Source: a virus. From it: a stretch of 64,000 bases of DNA. Below the pieces are notes generated by a model. That model was not told where the DNA came from. It saw nothing but the letters and a program-made list of their open reading frames with translations, and ran no database searches. Positions 15,782-41,924 of this stretch are shown here, piece by piece (position 1 is the stretch's first letter; each line of letters begins with the position of its first letter). The stretch spans positions 52,501 through 116,500 of the IMG/VR virus record IMGVR_UViG_3300027782_000044; one strand, written 5' to 3'. Position numbers and translations under genes: made by a program.

Positions 15782-15859
15782 TTAGCCTATTATCTGATAT
15801 ATGATACCAAGGATAAAAGTCATTGCAGTTACTATGGCTATAGCCAAAAGAAGTTTCAC
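15782..15859 (-). CDS. Tiny membrane peptide
   Basis: A 25-residue frame with a GTG start (VKLLLAIAIVTAMTFILG), almost entirely a transmembrane segment. The GTG overlaps the upstream stop (GTGA), which suggests coupling. Speculative because of its size. Confidence 0.45.
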   Translation of the reverse strand: MKLLLAIAIVTAMTFILGIIYQIIG

Positions 15860-15963
15860 TGTTCTATCCCCGTTTTTTTAAAAATTGAATCTAGGACTTG
15901 ATCCATAGAATCATCTATCGTTCTAGTATGTTGCTTTGTACAGCTTCCACATTCTCTACACAT
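15856..15963 (-). CDS. Tiny cysteine-rich peptide (MCRECGSC)
   Basis: A 35-residue frame beginning MCRECGSCTKQHTRT, preceded by AGGTGAT, a good anti-SD match. The CxxCxxC cluster could bind a metal and resembles the MCxxCGC peptides at 37 kb. Its start lies about 200 bases downstream of a minus-strand promoter. Confidence 0.55.
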   Translation of the reverse strand: MCRECGSCTKQHTRTIDDSMDQVLDSIFKKTGIEQ

Positions 15964-29697: not shown

Positions 29698-30729
29698 TCA
29701 CTCATCTCTTCCAACCAGATACTCCCTCTTAAATTTAAAAAAATTAGATAGGTCTATGCCTATTTTATCATAATACTGAGCAATCGATTCCTTATTTGGT
29801 GCTCCCCAATACCCAAGGTATTCTCCAGAAAATATTTGAGACTGATAATAGGCTGACTTTCTTTCATCGTATACACCAATCCTGCCCCTACTTAAAGCTC
29901 TCCAGTCATTATCAGATAAAAGCTTTCCATCGTTAAACTTATCTTTAGTCCAGGCTATACATTTTTTAATTCCAAACATCCTGTAGCCTCTAGTACCTGC
30001 TCTAAAAGATAGATTAGTCTGATCTCCATTAAAAGGATTAGTTGGATCGTGCATTATCTCACGAGCAAAGGCAAAGTTTGTGAACATGAATGAAGCATGT
30101 ATTAATCCATGCTCAACAAAATCTTGGCCATCTTTCCAGTTCATGCCACTTCCTTCAATAAAAGGGTGCTCTATCATTTCTTCGCTGTGAGTTGTACTAT
30201 TAATATGGTCAGAAGAGTTAACAGTTATAATCCTTATTGCCAATGAGCCAAAGTTTTCTTCAGTCTTAAAGTTTAATGGATCTATCTGCACACCGCTAAA
30301 TCCATGCAATAATACTTCTTTATTTGGTCCATCTATCCATCTCGGAGGACATGCAGATATTATAGGCTTATCGCAAACCTTTAGCAAATCTTTGTAGTGC
30401 TTCTTGAGAGTAGTATCCCAGCCTTTTTCAAAAATATTATGTGCATCAACTTGGAGCAAATACTCATGATCCCTATGGTTCATCATAGAAGCCATAAGTC
30501 TACCAATCCCAGTTCCTAATGGACGTTCATGCTTTATCTCTACATAGTTTATTCTTGGATTATTGAATATTGGATCTGACAAAAAGTCTTTTTCATCTAT
30601 AACTGTGTTAGCAATTCCAAAATATAATAGATCTGGGCTATCTGCATTTTCAAGTGCGCTTTTAATTGTTTGAACTAAGAATTCTTCTTTACATGCGGCT
30701 ATAGATATATAAATTGTTTCTTCTATCAC
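29698..30729 (-). CDS. GlcNAc-type glycosyltransferase (GT60-like)
   Basis: A protein of 343 residues. The N-terminal Rossmann-like segment (TIYISIAACKEEFLVQTIKS), the GTGIGRLMASMM stretch, the D-x-H motif in YLLQVDAHNIFEKGWD and ISACPPRWIDG match the GlcNAc-transferase family that glycosylates hydroxyproline or sugar acceptors. It would transfer a sugar from a nucleotide donor to a protein, DNA or envelope acceptor. It is coupled to a small membrane protein gene upstream by an ATGA overlap. Together with the hydroxylases elsewhere in this region it may act on hydroxylated targets, which is inference. Confidence 0.8.
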   Translation of the reverse strand: MIEETIYISIAACKEEFLVQTIKSALENADSPDLLYFGIANTVIDEKDFLSDPIFNNPRINYVEIKHERPLGTGIGRLMASMMNHRDHEYLLQVDAHNIFEKGWDTTLKKHYKDLLKVCDKPIISACPPRWIDGPNKEVLLHGFSGVQIDPLNFKTEENFGSLAIRIITVNSSDHINSTTHSEEMIEHPFIEGSGMNWKDGQDFVEHGLIHASFMFTNFAFAREIMHDPTNPFNGDQTNLSFRAGTRGYRMFGIKKCIAWTKDKFNDGKLLSDNDWRALSRGRIGVYDERKSAYYQSQIFSGEYLGYWGAPNKESIAQYYDKIGIDLSNFFKFKREYLVGRDE

Positions 30730-35217: not shown

Positions 35218-36037
35218 TATCCTTTACATAATTGTATATAAAATAATCAATATCGTTATTTTTTAATATTAAATCTATTTCTGATTGTGATAAAAGAGAG
35301 ATTAGATGCTTAGTGGTGATTTCTTTTTCATTTCCATAGCTAAAAACACCAGCATTAACAACTTTAGATTTGTCAAACTTTATGTCTATATTATAATTAA
35401 TGTTAAACCAGTTATTAATATTTTTTTCAAATAGGTCCATCCTATCTAAAGAGTTAACTATTTTAAAGCTCTTTATTGCTTTTAAGGCATTTTCCTTTGA
35501 TGTGTTTGCATTATCTATGAACCAAGTAAATGCCTCTCCTTTTTTTAAAAAGGGGTTCATTAGCTCTTCATAATGGGTTTTGTAAAAATCTAATGGTCTA
35601 AAAGATCTAGAGTCTGCTGAGTTACATATAAACCTAGACTGATAATTATTATGTAGTTCAAAGTTTGGGTCTTCAAACAAATAGTACCTTAGTTTATCTA
35701 TGGGAGTATCTATATCAGAATACTCTTTTCTGTTAAAAAGAGCACGATTATATATAAAATTAAAATAGCTAACCCTAGCTTCTACAGGGTTTCTTATTAT
35801 TGTAGCGACATCAATATTAGGTACCATGTCAATAGGGTATGTTCCAGCATGAATAGATGTGTAAACTTTTTTAGTAAAATTATTATTATTTGGATGATGA
35901 GTGCTTATATAATAAGATATATCATTAGCATCTAATGATCTTTTTATGTTTTCAGAAACGTATTTACCTGCAGTTTTTGGAATATGTAAAAAATATAACT
36001 GCTTTAGTCTTCCTTCTTCATAAGAGACTCGTTCCAC
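35195..36037 (-). CDS. Sulfotransferase-family protein (cassette 1)
   Basis: A protein of 280 residues. LHIPKTAGKYVSENI (residues 17-31) is the phosphosulfate-binding loop and IIRNPVEARVSYFNF (80-94) the 3'-phosphate-binding motif of PAPS-dependent sulfotransferases. It resembles carbohydrate/tyrosyl sulfotransferases. The start overlaps the 2OG oxygenase upstream by 34 bases and its end overlaps the hydroxylase gene. It would transfer sulfate from PAPS to a hydroxyl group. Confidence 0.8.
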   Translation of the reverse strand: MERVSYEEGRLKQLYFLHIPKTAGKYVSENIKRSLDANDISYYISTHHPNNNNFTKKVYTSIHAGTYPIDMVPNIDVATIIRNPVEARVSYFNFIYNRALFNRKEYSDIDTPIDKLRYYLFEDPNFELHNNYQSRFICNSADSRSFRPLDFYKTHYEELMNPFLKKGEAFTWFIDNANTSKENALKAIKSFKIVNSLDRMDLFEKNINNWFNINYNIDIKFDKSKVVNAGVFSYGNEKEITTKHLISLLSQSEIDLILKNNDIDYFIYNYVKDNETVDLL

Positions 36038-36843
36038 TTGTTAAGGCTCCTTCCTTGATTGTAAGAACCTTCCTTATGTCTTTCACGAAGAATTTCTGTC
36101 CATTCCTCTTCACTATATTGAGCTTTTTCAGCATGCCATTTTTCAGATCCTGCAAACTCATATCTCCAATACGCCCTAATCAAAGCTTTAGATCCACCCT
36201 TTGCAACCATTGGGCTATGATAAAAAGGATGTCCAGAAGGAAAAATAATTAAGTCCCCAGCGCTTGGCTTGTAGTACATGTGATTAATTAAATTTTCTTT
36301 GTCATCGCTTATTTCTATTATGTTTACTCCGCCATCTTCATAGTCATCATTTAAATAGAATAAGCATGTTGTCCCAAACTTTAAGCCTGGATCTTCTCTT
36401 CTTTCTTCTTGAAAATCAGTATGGTAGTTCATTCCCTGATAATCATTAACGCCCATTCCATCTTTATAGTATGCTACATCAACAGAATCCCAGCACCAAT
36501 TAGGATAATTAACTTCAACTGAAGCAAAATACTCATCTGAACATTCATGGAATACCTTGAACAAATTTTTGATGTATTGATTACTTGAAACACCATCTTC
36601 TTTATCATTAAAATTTTCATCTGAAAATGTTTTCCACTCATCTTTACTAGGGAATGACTCAAAGAACCCACGAGTAGTTGGTATTGCTATATGAAAGCCA
36701 AATGTATACCAAGGTGTAGACTGATCCTCATGATTGGTTAGGTAGTACTCCAGCATATCTTTTGAGTTATTTAATGCATTCTTAAAAACCCAAACTTTGT
36801 CATGGAGTTTTAATACTTCAACATCATTTCCATCAATTATCAA
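36004..36843 (-). CDS. 2-oxoglutarate/Fe(II) oxygenase
   Basis: A protein of 279 residues with a TTG start. H141 and D143 (MNYHTDFQEE) and a distal histidine (H205 or H209 in SGHPFYHSP) bind iron; R223 (LIRAYWRYE) is placed for 2-oxoglutarate. YLNDDYEDGGVNIIE and PSAGDLIIFPSG are core strands. The C-terminal 45 residues are highly charged. It heads the operon containing the sulfotransferase and the second hydroxylase. Confidence 0.83.
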   Translation of the reverse strand: MIIDGNDVEVLKLHDKVWVFKNALNNSKDMLEYYLTNHEDQSTPWYTFGFHIAIPTTRGFFESFPSKDEWKTFSDENFNDKEDGVSSNQYIKNLFKVFHECSDEYFASVEVNYPNWCWDSVDVAYYKDGMGVNDYQGMNYHTDFQEERREDPGLKFGTTCLFYLNDDYEDGGVNIIEISDDKENLINHMYYKPSAGDLIIFPSGHPFYHSPMVAKGGSKALIRAYWRYEFAGSEKWHAEKAQYSEEEWTEILRERHKEGSYNQGRSLNKWNESLMKKED

Positions 36844-37028: not shown

Positions 37029-37210
37029 TATACTTTTTTTCTTCCAGTTTTTCTAGGCGCTTGTGGGACAGCTGGAGTTTCTCTTCGAATACCATGTTTA
37101 TTAACATCGATCTTCATCGGAGGTCTTTTGGGCTGTACACCAGACTTAAATTTGCCCTGAGAAGGATTTTTTTTAGTTGCTTCTCCAGAGCTTACAACGT
37201 TTTCTGACAC
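37028..37210 (-). CDS. Small basic disordered protein (GTG start)
   Basis: A protein of 60 residues (MSENVVSSGEATKKNPSQGK), Pro/Lys/Arg-rich (QPKRPPMK, APRKTGRKKV), likely disordered. The GTG overlaps the preceding TAG and follows AAGGGAG. Confidence 0.6.
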   Translation of the reverse strand: MSENVVSSGEATKKNPSQGKFKSGVQPKRPPMKIDVNKHGIRRETPAVPQAPRKTGRKKV

Positions 37211-37317
37211 TATGCTCCCTTAATTTGTGAGATAGTTACAACGTTATTACTAGCTGGTGATGGAGCTGATTCATTTTGAATCTGCTCATCTTTTCCGCAT
37301 CCGCAATCTTTACACAT
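37210..37317 (-). CDS. Tiny MCxxCGC peptide (MCKDCGCGK)
   Basis: A 35-residue frame starting MCKDCGCGKDEQIQNESAPS. It shares the first-residue pattern MCxxCGC with two neighbours. The N-terminal Cys cluster may bind a metal or be a modification site. Confidence 0.6.
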   Translation of the reverse strand: MCKDCGCGKDEQIQNESAPSPASNNVVTISQIKGA

Positions 37318-37508
37318 TAGTCTGGATCCTCTATTCCTTCGCCCATTTCATGAAGAGGGCTCTCTTCAATGAAAGATTCTCTTTGAGATGACGTTGATGT
37401 CATATCTAGTGTTAAACCAGAAGCCCCCTGGCTTGTCATATCAATTATAGAAACTGGAACAATGCCAGTCTCACTGCCAACACTCTGGCATCCACACTCA
37501 ACGCACAT
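37317..37508 (-). CDS. MCxxCGC peptide (MCVECGCQS)
   Basis: A protein of 63 residues from the ATG at 37508. It begins MCVECGCQSVGSETGIVPVS and continues with a Ser/Thr-rich, acidic, probably disordered tail. TAATG coupling on both sides. Second member of the MCxxCGC set. Confidence 0.65.
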   Translation of the reverse strand: MCVECGCQSVGSETGIVPVSIIDMTSQGASGLTLDMTSTSSQRESFIEESPLHEMGEGIEDPD

Positions 37509-37509
37509 A

Positions 37510-37659
37510 TTACTTAGGGCCTTGAGCTTGTGCCTGGTTTGACATATCCGTTGATGGGAATGCTGCAGCAGGTGCATCTGACAAGTGCAAGTTTAGGTCG
37601 TTTGATCCTGATTGCTCGCCTGTCTCGTTAAATCCTTTTAAATCTTTTCCGTCTGACAT
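37510..37659 (-). CDS. Small Asn/Gln-rich protein
   Basis: A protein of 49 residues (MSDGKDLKGFNETGEQSGSN), polar and Ala/Pro-rich, likely disordered. AGGAGTAACAAC precedes its ATG. Function unknown. Confidence 0.6.
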   Translation of the reverse strand: MSDGKDLKGFNETGEQSGSNDLNLHLSDAPAAAFPSTDMSNQAQAQGPK

Positions 37660-37706
37660 GTTGTTACTCCTATAGGTTATTTATTTAAGCGGGACTAGTA
37701 TTCCGC

Positions 37707-37811
37707 TTATGAATCTATTATATCATTTAGTTGATTAGGATCAACTTCCACCTCAGTAGGCCTTTCGTTACCAAGACCTACGTGGTCGGCACATCCGCAT
37801 ATCCAACACAT
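37707..37811 (-). CDS. Tiny MCxxCGC peptide (MCWICGCADH), next to the radical SAM gene
   Basis: A 34-residue frame starting MCWICGCADHVGLGNERPTE, with an acidic tail. It starts 5 bases after the radical SAM stop, so the two are probably translated together. An AAGCGG/CCGCTT stem-loop (37687-37708) overlaps its stop. Confidence 0.6.
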   Translation of the reverse strand: MCWICGCADHVGLGNERPTEVEVDPNQLNDIIDS

Positions 37812-37816
37812 CTGTA

Positions 37817-38815
37817 TTAGCCCCAGATGGCCGCTGAGCACTTAGTACACATATTGGAGTATGAATCCTCTATCATGTCCGCTCTATCTTTGCTAAACCA
37901 TATATCCTTAATTGTAGAATTATTAGAATTTCCGTAGACTGTTTTAAAGTCAAAATCAGCACAACATATAAATAGGTCTCCATTTGGGTTAATATGCACC
38001 CACTCATTAGTTCTGCTTCTTACACCTAATCCGCCATTGCATCCAATTACTTTTTTGCCTTCTCCCGCCAAATATTTATTAATGGCTGAAGTCTGATCAA
38101 TTATTCCTGAGTCTGCAAGATGCCCAGCCCTATCGTATAGATGGTAAGCTGGGAAAACTTGGATTGAAGGGAATATAGACTTTAGCAGATCAACCTCCTG
38201 AGCTAAATCTCCACCTTCTACATCTAAGTTTAAATTTGGAGCTCCAGGAAGGATGTCTAACCATCCACCATTTTCAACTAACGAGTTATTGTTTAAGCCA
38301 TTGACCATCAAATAGAATCTATTGTCTAATACTAATTCTTTTAATTCTTCTGCTGCATACAAAACGTTTTCTACCATTTTGTCAAACATTTTTTCATTTA
38401 AATTAACATACTTAGACCATCTGGTTTTATCTCCAGATGGTATATTTAGAAGCATTCCACCAACTACATCAATATTATTTTTAATAATATCAGTTTTTTT
38501 CTTTGTTAATGGAGTACCATTGGTAAGTATGTTTATAGTAAAATTATATTTTCTGTACAAATCAAACATTTCTTCAAAGTTTTTATATAATAAAACTTCA
38601 TTATAATTAGCGGTATATATATTTTTTAGATTGGGATCTACAAAATCTCCTTTGCCATTATGAAGTTGAGAGAGTATATTTTCTAACTCCCCCAACTCCA
38701 TATCTCTAATAGCAGATTTTGGATTTCCTTCATAAGAAACTGGGCAAAACCAGCAACCAGCATTGCATAGACCATTTACATCTATCTGTACTGCACTGAT
38801 TTTGTATTGTGACAA
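37817..38815 (-). CDS. Radical SAM/SPASM-like protein
   Basis: A protein of 332 residues with a TTG start directly after the previous stop. C17, C21 and C24 in CNAGCWFC are the CxxxCxxC ligands of the radical SAM cluster. GGMLLNIPSG and NILTNGTPLT fit the partial TIM barrel. The C-terminus carries cysteines in IGCNGG, FICCADF and MCTKCSAA, like a SPASM domain for a second Fe-S cluster. Such enzymes mature peptides, proteins or sugars. It is followed at once by a tiny MCWICGC peptide gene. Confidence 0.85.
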   Translation of the reverse strand: MSQYKISAVQIDVNGLCNAGCWFCPVSYEGNPKSAIRDMELGELENILSQLHNGKGDFVDPNLKNIYTANYNEVLLYKNFEEMFDLYRKYNFTINILTNGTPLTKKKTDIIKNNIDVVGGMLLNIPSGDKTRWSKYVNLNEKMFDKMVENVLYAAEELKELVLDNRFYLMVNGLNNNSLVENGGWLDILPGAPNLNLDVEGGDLAQEVDLLKSIFPSIQVFPAYHLYDRAGHLADSGIIDQTSAINKYLAGEGKKVIGCNGGLGVRSRTNEWVHINPNGDLFICCADFDFKTVYGNSNNSTIKDIWFSKDRADMIEDSYSNMCTKCSAAIWG

Positions 38816-38816
38816 C

Positions 38817-39287
38817 TTAGTCTTTTAGTGACTTCCATGGGTTAGGAGGAAGCTTTAAGCTTGACTCCAAGAACCAGTTCCACTCTTGATGAGATGAAAG
38901 TCTTTCAGACAAATATGATGATAGACCGTACTCATTATTTTCATTGGCAACAGAGATAAGGTTCTTTATCTCCTCGATCATCTTTTTATTAATTGGAACT
39001 AGGTGAATTGCCATTTCAACTCCACAATATGTGTCTGGCTTAACATTGCCTAAAGTTTGGTTTGCTGCATATTCTTCTAGGGTATACGGCGCCTCTCCGC
39101 CTAATCGGCGAAGCCATGTTGAGGTATTGTGTACGCCCTCTTCAGAGTCTAGATAGATATCTTCATAAACAATGCGTGATTGACGCATCAAGACAGATTC
39201 TGTATTCCAGAAAAAGCCTCTTACTAAATTTGTGTATACCACAGAGTTAGCTTGAAATGTTTTTAATAGATTAATTAAATTTTCCAT
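38817..39287 (-). CDS. Dps/ferritin-like protein
   Basis: A protein of 156 residues, predicted four-helix bundle. YTNLVRGFFWNTESVLM, VYEDIYLDSEEGVHNTSTWL, RRLGGEAPYTLEEYAAN and the C-terminal SSHQEWNWFLES follow the Dps pattern. The usual first ferroxidase histidine (HW in most Dps proteins) appears as FFW here, so iron oxidation may be altered. It could protect phage DNA from oxidative damage. Confidence 0.7.
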   Translation of the reverse strand: MENLINLLKTFQANSVVYTNLVRGFFWNTESVLMRQSRIVYEDIYLDSEEGVHNTSTWLRRLGGEAPYTLEEYAANQTLGNVKPDTYCGVEMAIHLVPINKKMIEEIKNLISVANENNEYGLSSYLSERLSSHQEWNWFLESSLKLPPNPWKSLKD

Positions 39288-39434: not shown

Positions 39435-39650
39435 TTACTTACCTTTAATCTTTTCCCAAATTTTTTCATGAAGATAATAGAATGACATTTCTACGAGCAA
39501 GTATGATATAGCTCCAATTCCAATATATTCCCATTCAGCTTCTCCTGTAAGAAGTTTAGTTACAATATAAAGTAACCCTCCTACAAAAAATACATGCACA
39601 AATGGCCATGTAATTGATTTGTATAGGCTTTTCTTATTAGGATCTATCAC
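39435..39650 (-). CDS. DUF2061-like membrane protein
   Basis: A protein of 71 residues with two transmembrane segments (FVHVFFVGGLLYIVTKLL, YIGIGAISYLLVEMSFYY) and a basic end (HEKIWEKIKGK). The SITWPF...FYYLHEKIW pattern matches DUF2061 and the second copy at 50508-50711. Function unknown. Confidence 0.72.
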   Translation of the reverse strand: MIDPNKKSLYKSITWPFVHVFFVGGLLYIVTKLLTGEAEWEYIGIGAISYLLVEMSFYYLHEKIWEKIKGK

Positions 39651-39889
39651 TTTATTGACTTGCTCTTAGTAACGCCAGTCTTCTTGGCTGGTGCCTTCTT
39701 GGCTGGTGCCTTCTTGGCTGGTGCCTTCTTGGCTGGTGCCTTCTTGGCTGGTGCCTTCTTGGCTGGTGCCTTCTTGGCTGGTGCCTTAATTGATGCTAAA
39801 ATCGCATCCGTAATAACTTTTTCAAACATAGCTTCTTTTGGTGTTACACGAAGCCAACCCATAATCTTCATTTTTAATTTAATTAACAT
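39647..39889 (-). CDS. Histone-H1-like protein with AKKAP repeats
   Basis: A protein of 80 residues. The first 35 residues are amphipathic (MGWLRVTPKEAMFEKVITDA). The rest is seven tandem APAKK repeats followed by a basic end, like histone H1 tails and bacterial nucleoid proteins, and probably binds DNA or the packaged chromosome. Overlaps both neighbours. Confidence 0.75.
   Translation of the reverse strand: MLIKLKMKIMGWLRVTPKEAMFEKVITDAILASIKAPAKKAPAKKAPAKKAPAKKAPAKKAPAKKAPAKKTGVTKSKSIK
39683..39790. repeat. 15-bp tandem repeat encoding AKKAP
   Basis: Seven near-perfect copies of a unit reading CTTCTTGGCTGGTGC on the plus strand. Copy number is expected to vary by slippage. Confidence 0.9.
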
Positions 39890-40730: not shown

Positions 40731-41924
40731 TTACTTAATTAGGGTTACCTTAGCTTTTGGGTTTTTTGCATTCCACTTTTTAGCGAGTGCATTGAAAGAG
40801 GCTTTGATTGCCTTAAGTGCTGCTGCATTATCTGCTGTTAGCTTAGCAATGGCTGCATCCTTAGCAAGGATAGAGGCATCTGAAGCAGTCTTAGCATCGG
40901 CAAGAGCCTTAGCTGAAGCAGCCTTCTCCGCTGTAATAGCAGCATCTGAAGCAGTTTTAGCATCGGCAAGAGCCTTAGCTGAAGCAGCCTTCTCCGCTGC
41001 AATAGCAGCATCTGAAGCAGTCTTAGCAGCAACAGCATCTGAAGCAGCCTTTACGACTGCAGCATCTGAAACTGCTTTAGCAGCAAGCGCTGCATCTGTT
41101 GCTGACTTAGCAGCAGCAAGTTCTGACACTAGATCACGAACTGCAATTTCTGCAAATGGCGCAAGCGCACGAGCAGGAAGACCGACTACGTCTACTGATG
41201 TTGCATCAGATGATGTAGTAGGTGAGAATGTAATTAGTGATCGTGTTCCAGTTGCTGGAAGTGTTGCAGTAAACTTTGCAACTCCAAAGTCTGAAAGTGT
41301 CGCTCCAGTTGTAACTGTTGAGGTATCAACTGTTGCTGTTGAAGCAAAGATTGTTGCAGTAATTGACTTACCAGATACTTTGTTTCCGAATGTATCTGTT
41401 GCGGTTACTGAGATATCTTGCTTTGTACCAGCAGCGCCTGTAGCAGGAGCAGATACTGTAAGAGTATTAATCTTGCCAGCAGTTCCTTGTACATAATATG
41501 TAAGCTGTGTTCCACCATTAGTGATTACAACTGTACCAATTGCTGTTGTCTTTGTATAGACATAAAATGTTGCTGTTGTTCCTGTACCAGTTGCAACTGT
41601 CAAAGATGATGATCCTGACGCTGCGCCTACTGGAGCAGCTGTTGTATGTAGTGCTGAAAGAATTGTTGCATTTGTTGCTGATACTGAAACGCTTGTTCCA
41701 ACATCAACTGTTGCAATAAACTTTAGTGCATCTGCAGCATCAACTGTGTTGTCTGCAGGTACTGGCAATGAAGCTGGTGTAGCAATTGCAGATGCTGTAG
41801 TATTTGCTACAGTATCTAGTGATACAGCGACTGTCATTACAGCAGCACTTGCAGGTGTTGCTACCATTGTGCCCAAAGTCATGGCTGCAACCATGGCTAG
41901 TGCGATTTTCTTAAATGAGTTCAT
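40731..41924 (-). CDS. Secreted Ig-like/alanine-rich repeat protein
   Basis: A protein of 397 residues. The N-terminal 29 residues are a clear signal peptide (KKIALAMVAAMTLGTMVATP, cleaved near ASA-AV). Two or three bacterial Ig-like domains follow (TLTVSAPATGAAGTKQDISV). From about residue 260 come Ala/Lys/Asp coiled-coil repeats (ASDAAIAAEKAASAKALADA), and the protein ends in a KKWNAKNPKAKVTLIK tail. It resembles host cell-surface proteins more than phage structural ones. It has its own 5' leader hairpin (41948-41968) and a strong downstream hairpin, suggesting abundant expression. Confidence 0.75.
   Translation of the reverse strand: MNSFKKIALAMVAAMTLGTMVATPASAAVMTVAVSLDTVANTTASAIATPASLPVPADNTVDAADALKFIATVDVGTSVSVSATNATILSALHTTAAPVGAASGSSSLTVATGTGTTATFYVYTKTTAIGTVVITNGGTQLTYYVQGTAGKINTLTVSAPATGAAGTKQDISVTATDTFGNKVSGKSITATIFASTATVDTSTVTTGATLSDFGVAKFTATLPATGTRSLITFSPTTSSDATSVDVVGLPARALAPFAEIAVRDLVSELAAAKSATDAALAAKAVSDAAVVKAASDAVAAKTASDAAIAAEKAASAKALADAKTASDAAITAEKAASAKALADAKTASDASILAKDAAIAKLTADNAAALKAIKASFNALAKKWNAKNPKAKVTLIK
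40879..40998. repeat. 60-bp tandem repeat in the secreted-protein gene
   Basis: Two almost identical 60-bp units encoding the ASDAAIAAEKAASAKALADA block, flanked by degenerate copies. Confidence 0.8.

What the first reader, a model, noticed from the sequence alone, without database searches (positions are those of the whole stretch)
37210..38815. Radical SAM/SPASM gene beside tiny MCxxCGC peptides
Three frames start MCKDCGCGK (37317), MCVECGCQS (37508) and MCWICGCAD (37811); the last begins 5 bases after the radical SAM stop. A fourth, MCRECGSC, is at 15963. A radical SAM enzyme with SPASM-like cysteines next to short Cys-led peptides recalls ribosomally made, modified peptide systems, although these peptides could simply be metal-binding.
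Basis: inference. Interest (0 to 1): 0.66.

Follow-up and report, generated by a model that had tools for sequence, protein, structure and literature searches.

The report
Phage metal-binding micro-peptides beside radical-SAM enzyme
A freshwater bacteriophage carries several tiny genes whose proteins start with the same cysteine pattern that a bacterial nickel-handling protein uses to grip metal; one of them is always found with a phage-only radical enzyme, while the others belong to a large, apparently undescribed class of phage mini-proteins that do without it.

Summary
Three MCxxCGC genes (37811-37707, 37508-37317, 37317-37210, minus strand) follow a radical-SAM gene; a C-x2-C-x2-C relative (MCRECGSC) lies at 15963. 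They are real genes: stop/start coupling, pS much larger than pN, none expected by chance. The RiPP reading is only partly supported. (1) The motif is widespread in uncultured phages without the enzyme: a capped scan returned 120 contigs, none with this enzyme in the fetched DNA, and 0 of 43 tested records held any radical-SAM gene. One of the three families also occurs in a phage lacking the enzyme, and the motif even starts a 2OG-Fe(II) oxygenase. (2) It matches the E. coli HypB metal site (Cys2, Cys5, Cys7, N-terminal amine), so metal binding is the best reading. (3) One family, MCW[IML]CGCA[DS]H[VI]G, is different: all 46 contigs found to encode it carry this enzyme, usually within 6 nt, so it is probably a dedicated partner (metal or cluster donor, or substrate). 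(4) The enzyme is a phage family with a single auxiliary-cluster Cys set, not the 7-Cys SPASM. Distant relatives lack such peptides and often sit beside 2OG oxygenases, GlcNAc transferases and PT-repeat proteins, suggesting virion-protein or glycan modification.

The parts
37707..37811 (-). Family A micro-peptide MCWICGCADHVGLGN..., 34 aa; constant companion of the radical-SAM gene
   Evidence: 33 distinct CDS, pS 0.88 / pN 0.07; all 46 contigs encoding it carry the enzyme
37317..37508 (-). Family B micro-peptide MCVECGCQSVGSETG..., 63 aa
   Evidence: 17 distinct CDS, pS 0.72 / pN 0.13; also in L158 (97.7-kb record without any radical-SAM hit) and L210
37210..37317 (-). Family C micro-peptide MCKDCGCGKDEQIQNES..., 35 aa; start overlaps family B stop (TAATG)
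15856..15963 (-). Family D micro-peptide MCRECGSCTKQHTRTIDD..., 35 aa; Cys2/Cys5/Cys8 spacing
   Evidence: 9 distinct CDS, relatives near the same enzyme in L032, L033, L074
37817..38815 (-). Radical-SAM enzyme, 332 aa, CxxxCxxC core plus one auxiliary-cluster Cys set; phage family
37510..37659 (-). 49-aa Ser/Ala/Gln-rich peptide between families A and B
   Evidence: sequence shown directly
38817..39287 (-). Dps/ferritin-like protein directly upstream of the enzyme
   Evidence: PF00210 E 4e-7, phrog_3636; in 10 of 20 close non-redundant loci
36004..36843 (-). 2OG-Fe(II) oxygenase (PF13640); its cluster is the most widely shared neighbour of the enzyme family
   Evidence: cluster in 28 of 46 non-redundant loci
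29698..30729 (-). GlcNAc-type glycosyltransferase (PF11397), elsewhere in the same phage

Best explanation
The Cys-led peptides are phage micro-proteins whose shared N-terminus, Met1-Cys2-x-x-Cys5-Gly-Cys7, is a self-contained metal-binding tag that chelates a thiophilic metal (Ni, Cu, Zn or Fe) through three thiolates and probably the N-terminal amine, as in the N-terminus of E. coli HypB. The tag occurs on many unrelated tails and, at least once, on a whole 2OG-Fe(II) oxygenase; in most phages it has nothing to do with a radical-SAM enzyme. In this clade of freshwater (probably actinobacterial) phages one version, MCWxCGCADHxGxGN, is usually translationally coupled to, and not found without, a phage radical-SAM enzyme with one auxiliary cluster. 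Most likely it serves that enzyme as an accessory (metal or iron-sulfur donor, or small redox partner); being its substrate is the main alternative. The enzyme itself most likely modifies a virion protein or its glycan. Shown: the genes, their selection, the motif distribution, the linkage, the Cys inventory. Inferred: metal binding, accessory role, host, enzyme substrate.
For: HypB binds Ni(II) with Cys2, Cys5, Cys7 and the N-terminal amine in a CXXCGC motif (PMC7055735); the isolated HypB peptide MCTTCGCGEG binds Cu (PMC6848105). NCBIfam HypB_prefix_1 aligns to the start of six of fourteen sequences tested (E 0.0003 to 0.03, below its cut-off). The tag is on a 2OG oxygenase in two contigs at 72% identity with all three Cys kept. 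MCW linkage: 46 of 46 contigs; 35 of 36 close-clade enzyme loci; order varies (enzyme-MCW-PLP enzyme in L018, enzyme-PLP enzyme-MCW in L026) yet the pair stays. Distant enzyme relatives: no MCxxCGC in 427 kb, but a 2OG-oxygenase cluster in 13 of 26, a PF11397 transferase cluster in 11 of 26, and PT-repeat proteins.
Against: No metal was measured. The two sources on HypB disagree on the metal: subpicomolar Ni (PMC7055735) against Cu only, no Ni or Zn isotherm (PMC6848105). HypB_prefix scores are below the curated cut-off and cover only 13-36 residues. The MCW linkage lies in one clade of the enzyme tree, so shared ancestry explains part of it. L016 keeps an intact enzyme while its MCW gene has an internal deletion. 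The Dps association is not general: 13 of 80 Dps loci, mostly one clade.
Confidence: 0.5

Rival explanations
1. RiPP-like: the MCWxCGC peptide is the ribosomal substrate of the adjacent radical-SAM enzyme, which forms a thioether, C-C crosslink or epimer on the Cys/Trp-rich N-terminus to give a modified metallopeptide.
For: Found only with the enzyme (46 of 46 contigs), within 6 nt downstream in most; strongest constraint exactly over CWxCGCADHxGxGN; the model resembles SuiB, EpeE, SkfB and anSME among others; the MCW-linked enzyme clade has its own small inserts.
Against: No leader-then-core layout; no RRE or known RiPP-maturase family above cut-off; best structural and sequence match is BtrN, which oxidises a small cyclitol, at TM only about 0.5; distant enzymes have no such peptide; L016 has the enzyme without an intact peptide.
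Confidence: 0.22
2. Mere synteny: MCW and the enzyme are functionally unrelated neighbours in one phage clade, MCW being just another MCxxCGC metal peptide in the same operon.
For: Families B-E sit in the same operon and at least B occurs without the enzyme; MCW-bearing enzymes form one clade.
Against: MCW is retained in 19 of 20 non-redundant close loci, more than any other neighbour (next 15 of 20), despite gene-order changes, and the pattern was never found without the enzyme in the viral collection.
Confidence: 0.22
3. The peptides are regulatory leader ORFs (for example cysteine-sensing attenuators) whose Cys codons matter rather than their products.
For: Cys-rich first seven codons, short length, tight coupling to neighbouring genes.
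Against: Synonymous sites vary freely while residues well past the Cys codons are conserved; MCW follows rather than precedes the enzyme; the tag is fused to a 238-aa enzyme.
Confidence: 0.04

Closest known systems
N-terminus of E. coli HypB (CXXCGC high-affinity metal site)
   Same: Same Met-Cys-x-x-Cys-Gly-Cys start; all three thiolates and, if unblocked, a free N-terminus available.
   Different: No GTPase domain; free-standing 34-63 aa phage proteins with unrelated tails; HypB_prefix_1 scores below cut-off.
BtrN (2-deoxy-scyllo-inosamine dehydrogenase, radical SAM with one auxiliary cluster)
   Same: Best PDB hit by sequence (E 3e-7 over residues 6-111) and by fold (E 3.7e-10); one auxiliary-cluster Cys set.
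   Different: 16% identity over the fold alignment, TM 0.50/0.65, longer enzyme, different gene context.
SPASM/twitch peptide maturases (SuiB, EpeE, SkfB, anSME)
   Same: Fold hits at E 1e-9 to 1e-7; adjacency to a short Cys peptide.
   Different: 7-Cys SPASM set absent; peptide lacks leader/core layout; no recognised RRE.
A0A6J5RAW2, Radical_SAM protein of an uncultured Caudovirales phage (BFVD)
   Same: Same family: 51% identity, TM 0.94/0.97.
   Different: Known only as a radical-SAM domain protein; its peptide context was not examined.

Membership tests
HypB (NCBIfam HypB / HypB_prefix_1) | N-terminal M-C-x-x-C-G-C | tested here: met
   Three window peptides; HypB arrangement from PMC7055735
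HypB (NCBIfam HypB / HypB_prefix_1) | HMM score above curated cut-off and GTPase domain | tested here: not met
   15.7-22.2 bits against cut-off 30; window proteins are 34-63 aa
HypB (NCBIfam HypB / HypB_prefix_1) | Tight Ni(II) binding | not testable with these tools
   Needs purified peptide
Radical SAM superfamily (PF04055) | CxxxCxxC core, PF04055 above cut-off | tested here: met
   39.7 bits against 29.5; C17, C21, C24 invariant in 45 sequences
SPASM peptide maturases | Two auxiliary clusters (7-Cys SPASM set) | tested here: not met
   Only C259, C284, C285, C323, C326 conserved; PF13186 itself hits at 36.6 bits against 21.5
RiPP system | Precursor co-occurs with the maturase | tested here: met
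   MCW family 46 of 46 contigs; family B occurs without it
RiPP system | Leader-binding RRE, protease or exporter nearby | tested here: inconclusive
   No RRE in Pfam/NCBIfam scans of the enzyme; no evident protease or exporter among neighbour clusters, read by eye only
RiPP system | Covalent modification of the peptide | not testable with these tools
   Needs co-expression and mass spectrometry

The most novel reading that the evidence does not exclude
The phage encodes a dedicated pair, a phage-only radical-SAM enzyme plus a 34-residue Cys/Trp metallopeptide that is its leaderless substrate or its private iron-sulfur/electron donor, used to modify virion proteins together with 2OG hydroxylases and a GlcNAc transferase. 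More generally, phages use a portable N-terminal MCxxCGC tag to load metal into their own proteins.
Probability: 0.25. Interest if true: 0.8.

Novelty: new variant of a known kind. Interest (0 to 1): 0.52.

Why it matters
If the tag binds metal, phages of lakes and other environments carry a common, apparently unnamed class of metallopeptides: the peptides tested had no Pfam, PHROGs or NCBIfam match above cut-off, and five searched in 50,697 GenBank phage records gave nothing beyond chance level. That would make phage handling of cellular metal pools testable with synthetic peptides. The MCW-enzyme pair is a small, clean system for asking whether phages modify their own proteins with radical chemistry.

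Tried and rejected
Dps as a general partner of MCxxCGC peptides: 13 of 80 Dps loci, mostly one peptide family, rejected as a rule. PLP Cys/Met enzyme (PF01053) as a required third member: its cluster is in 14 of 20 close loci and 10 of 12 tested records match, but G000 and the L016 record do not. Cellular origin of the enzyme: a scan of 84,980 species genomes gave one 25% partial hit; it used only two peptide patterns, so distant cellular relatives could be missed. Other Cys-rich peptides as stand-ins in distant loci: no conserved one seen. Permuted-motif control (MCGCxxC): 58 hits in a complete scan, but many are themselves recurring peptides, so it is not a clean chance control. GenBank phage searches with the enzyme and five peptides: nothing beyond two hits at E 7. 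Paper searches found no description of these peptides or of a phage RiPP of this kind in the open-access library.

Full report
Observation. Minus-strand order is Dps-like protein (39287-38817), radical-SAM enzyme (38815-37817, TTG start), MCWICGC peptide (37811-37707), a 49-aa peptide (37659-37510), MCVECGC (37508-37317), MCKDCGC (37317-37210), two short basic proteins, then a 2OG-Fe(II) oxygenase (36843-36004). Starts sit within a few bases of, or overlap, the preceding stop. A Markov-1 simulation of the window gave no MCxxCGC in 300 trials, and 983 kb of other viral DNA (distant enzyme loci, permuted-motif loci) gave none.

These are genes. Across related contigs synonymous differences far exceed replacement differences: pS 0.88 / pN 0.07 for the MCW family (33 distinct CDS), 0.72/0.13, 0.64/0.23 and 0.71/0.12 for families B, C and D. 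Conservation of the MCW family starts exactly at the Met although the DNA just upstream is usually the end of the enzyme's coding sequence.

Source. The window is bases 52501-116500 of a 116.5-kb viral record. It matches WhiB, three 2OG-Fe(II) oxygenases, two Asp/Arg hydroxylases, IMPDH, APS kinase, thioredoxin, AhpC/TSA, Cpn10, a ribonucleotide reductase, RecA/UvsX and tail genes; WhiB points to an actinobacterial host (inference).

Linkage. A scan with the enzyme found 77 viral loci. Of 36 close ones (61-100% identity) the MCW peptide is present in 35, mostly within 6 nt of the enzyme's stop (some overlap it by 1 nt), or about 1.06 kb on, after a PLP enzyme. In L016 an internal deletion removed the MCW start while the enzyme is intact. 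A separate pattern scan for MCW found 46 contigs; 45 loci contain the enzyme and the remaining fragment (L110) comes from the contig of L028, which has it. The forty distant relatives have no MCxxCGC peptide.

The motif without the enzyme. None of those loci has this enzyme, and 0 of 43 records tested has any PF04055 match, against 9 of 43 in a comparison set of Dps-bearing viral records, some of them much longer. The peptides fall into many unrelated tail families, several next to portal, major head or HslV-like genes. Family B occurs in L158 (97.7-kb record) and L210 without the enzyme. In L017 and L329 the motif begins a 2OG-Fe(II) oxygenase of about 238 aa.

What the motif resembles. E. 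coli HypB binds Ni(II) at subpicomolar Kd through Cys2, Cys5, Cys7 and the N-terminal amine of its CXXCGC start (PMC7055735). The phage peptides have the same residues in the same places. NCBIfam HypB_prefix_1 aligns to several (E 0.0003 to 0.03, below cut-off). A second paper found the HypB peptide bound Cu, with no Ni or Zn isotherm by ITC (PMC6848105), so the metal is open.

The enzyme. Invariant Cys are the CxxxCxxC core and C259, C284, C285, C323, C326 in 45 non-redundant sequences: one auxiliary cluster is plausible, two are not. The model (pLDDT 90) matches BtrN best, then SuiB, DesII, BlsE, anSME, EpeE and SkfB at TM about 0.5, so fold does not choose between small-molecule and peptide substrates. 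The family appears phage-restricted at the sensitivity used. In distant relatives the neighbours are a 2OG-oxygenase cluster (13 of 26), a cluster represented by a PF11397 GlcNAc transferase (11 of 26, mostly immediately downstream) and PT-repeat proteins. PF11397 includes the Dictyostelium transferase acting on hydroxyproline (own knowledge), which would fit hydroxylation and glycosylation of a proline-rich virion protein (inference). The window phage also encodes a PF11397 protein at 29698-30729.

Verdict. Metal-binding tag for the class as a whole; dedicated accessory or substrate of the radical-SAM enzyme for the MCW family alone. The RiPP reading survives only for MCW and is not favoured.

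Noticed in passing
window 40731-41924 (-): 397-aa Ala-rich protein with what looks like a Sec signal peptide (ending ATPASAA); its cluster lies upstream of the enzyme in 12 of 20 close loci. A secreted phage protein of unknown role.
   Followed up: no
L332-L387 (e.g. L338, L336, L334): A second class of recurring tiny Cys-led phage peptides, MCGCxxCxC (about 18-21 aa, e.g. MCGCNDCNCGCSTINITY), surfaced in the permuted-motif control.
   Followed up: partly
L018:7031-8107, L026:2825-3883: PLP-dependent Cys/Met enzyme (PF01053) beside the enzyme/MCW pair in 14 of 20 close loci, with swapped gene order; no match in the window's record.
   Followed up: partly
window 39647-39889 (-): (KKAPA)n histone-H1-like tail protein upstream of the Dps-like gene; similar Lys/Ala/Pro tails end many MCxxCGC peptides in other phages.
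   Followed up: no
L021:10413-10523, L018:10446-10550: Short protein with CxCG...YCDGTH resembling a CDGSH iron-sulfur motif, near the enzyme locus in three close phages.
   Followed up: no
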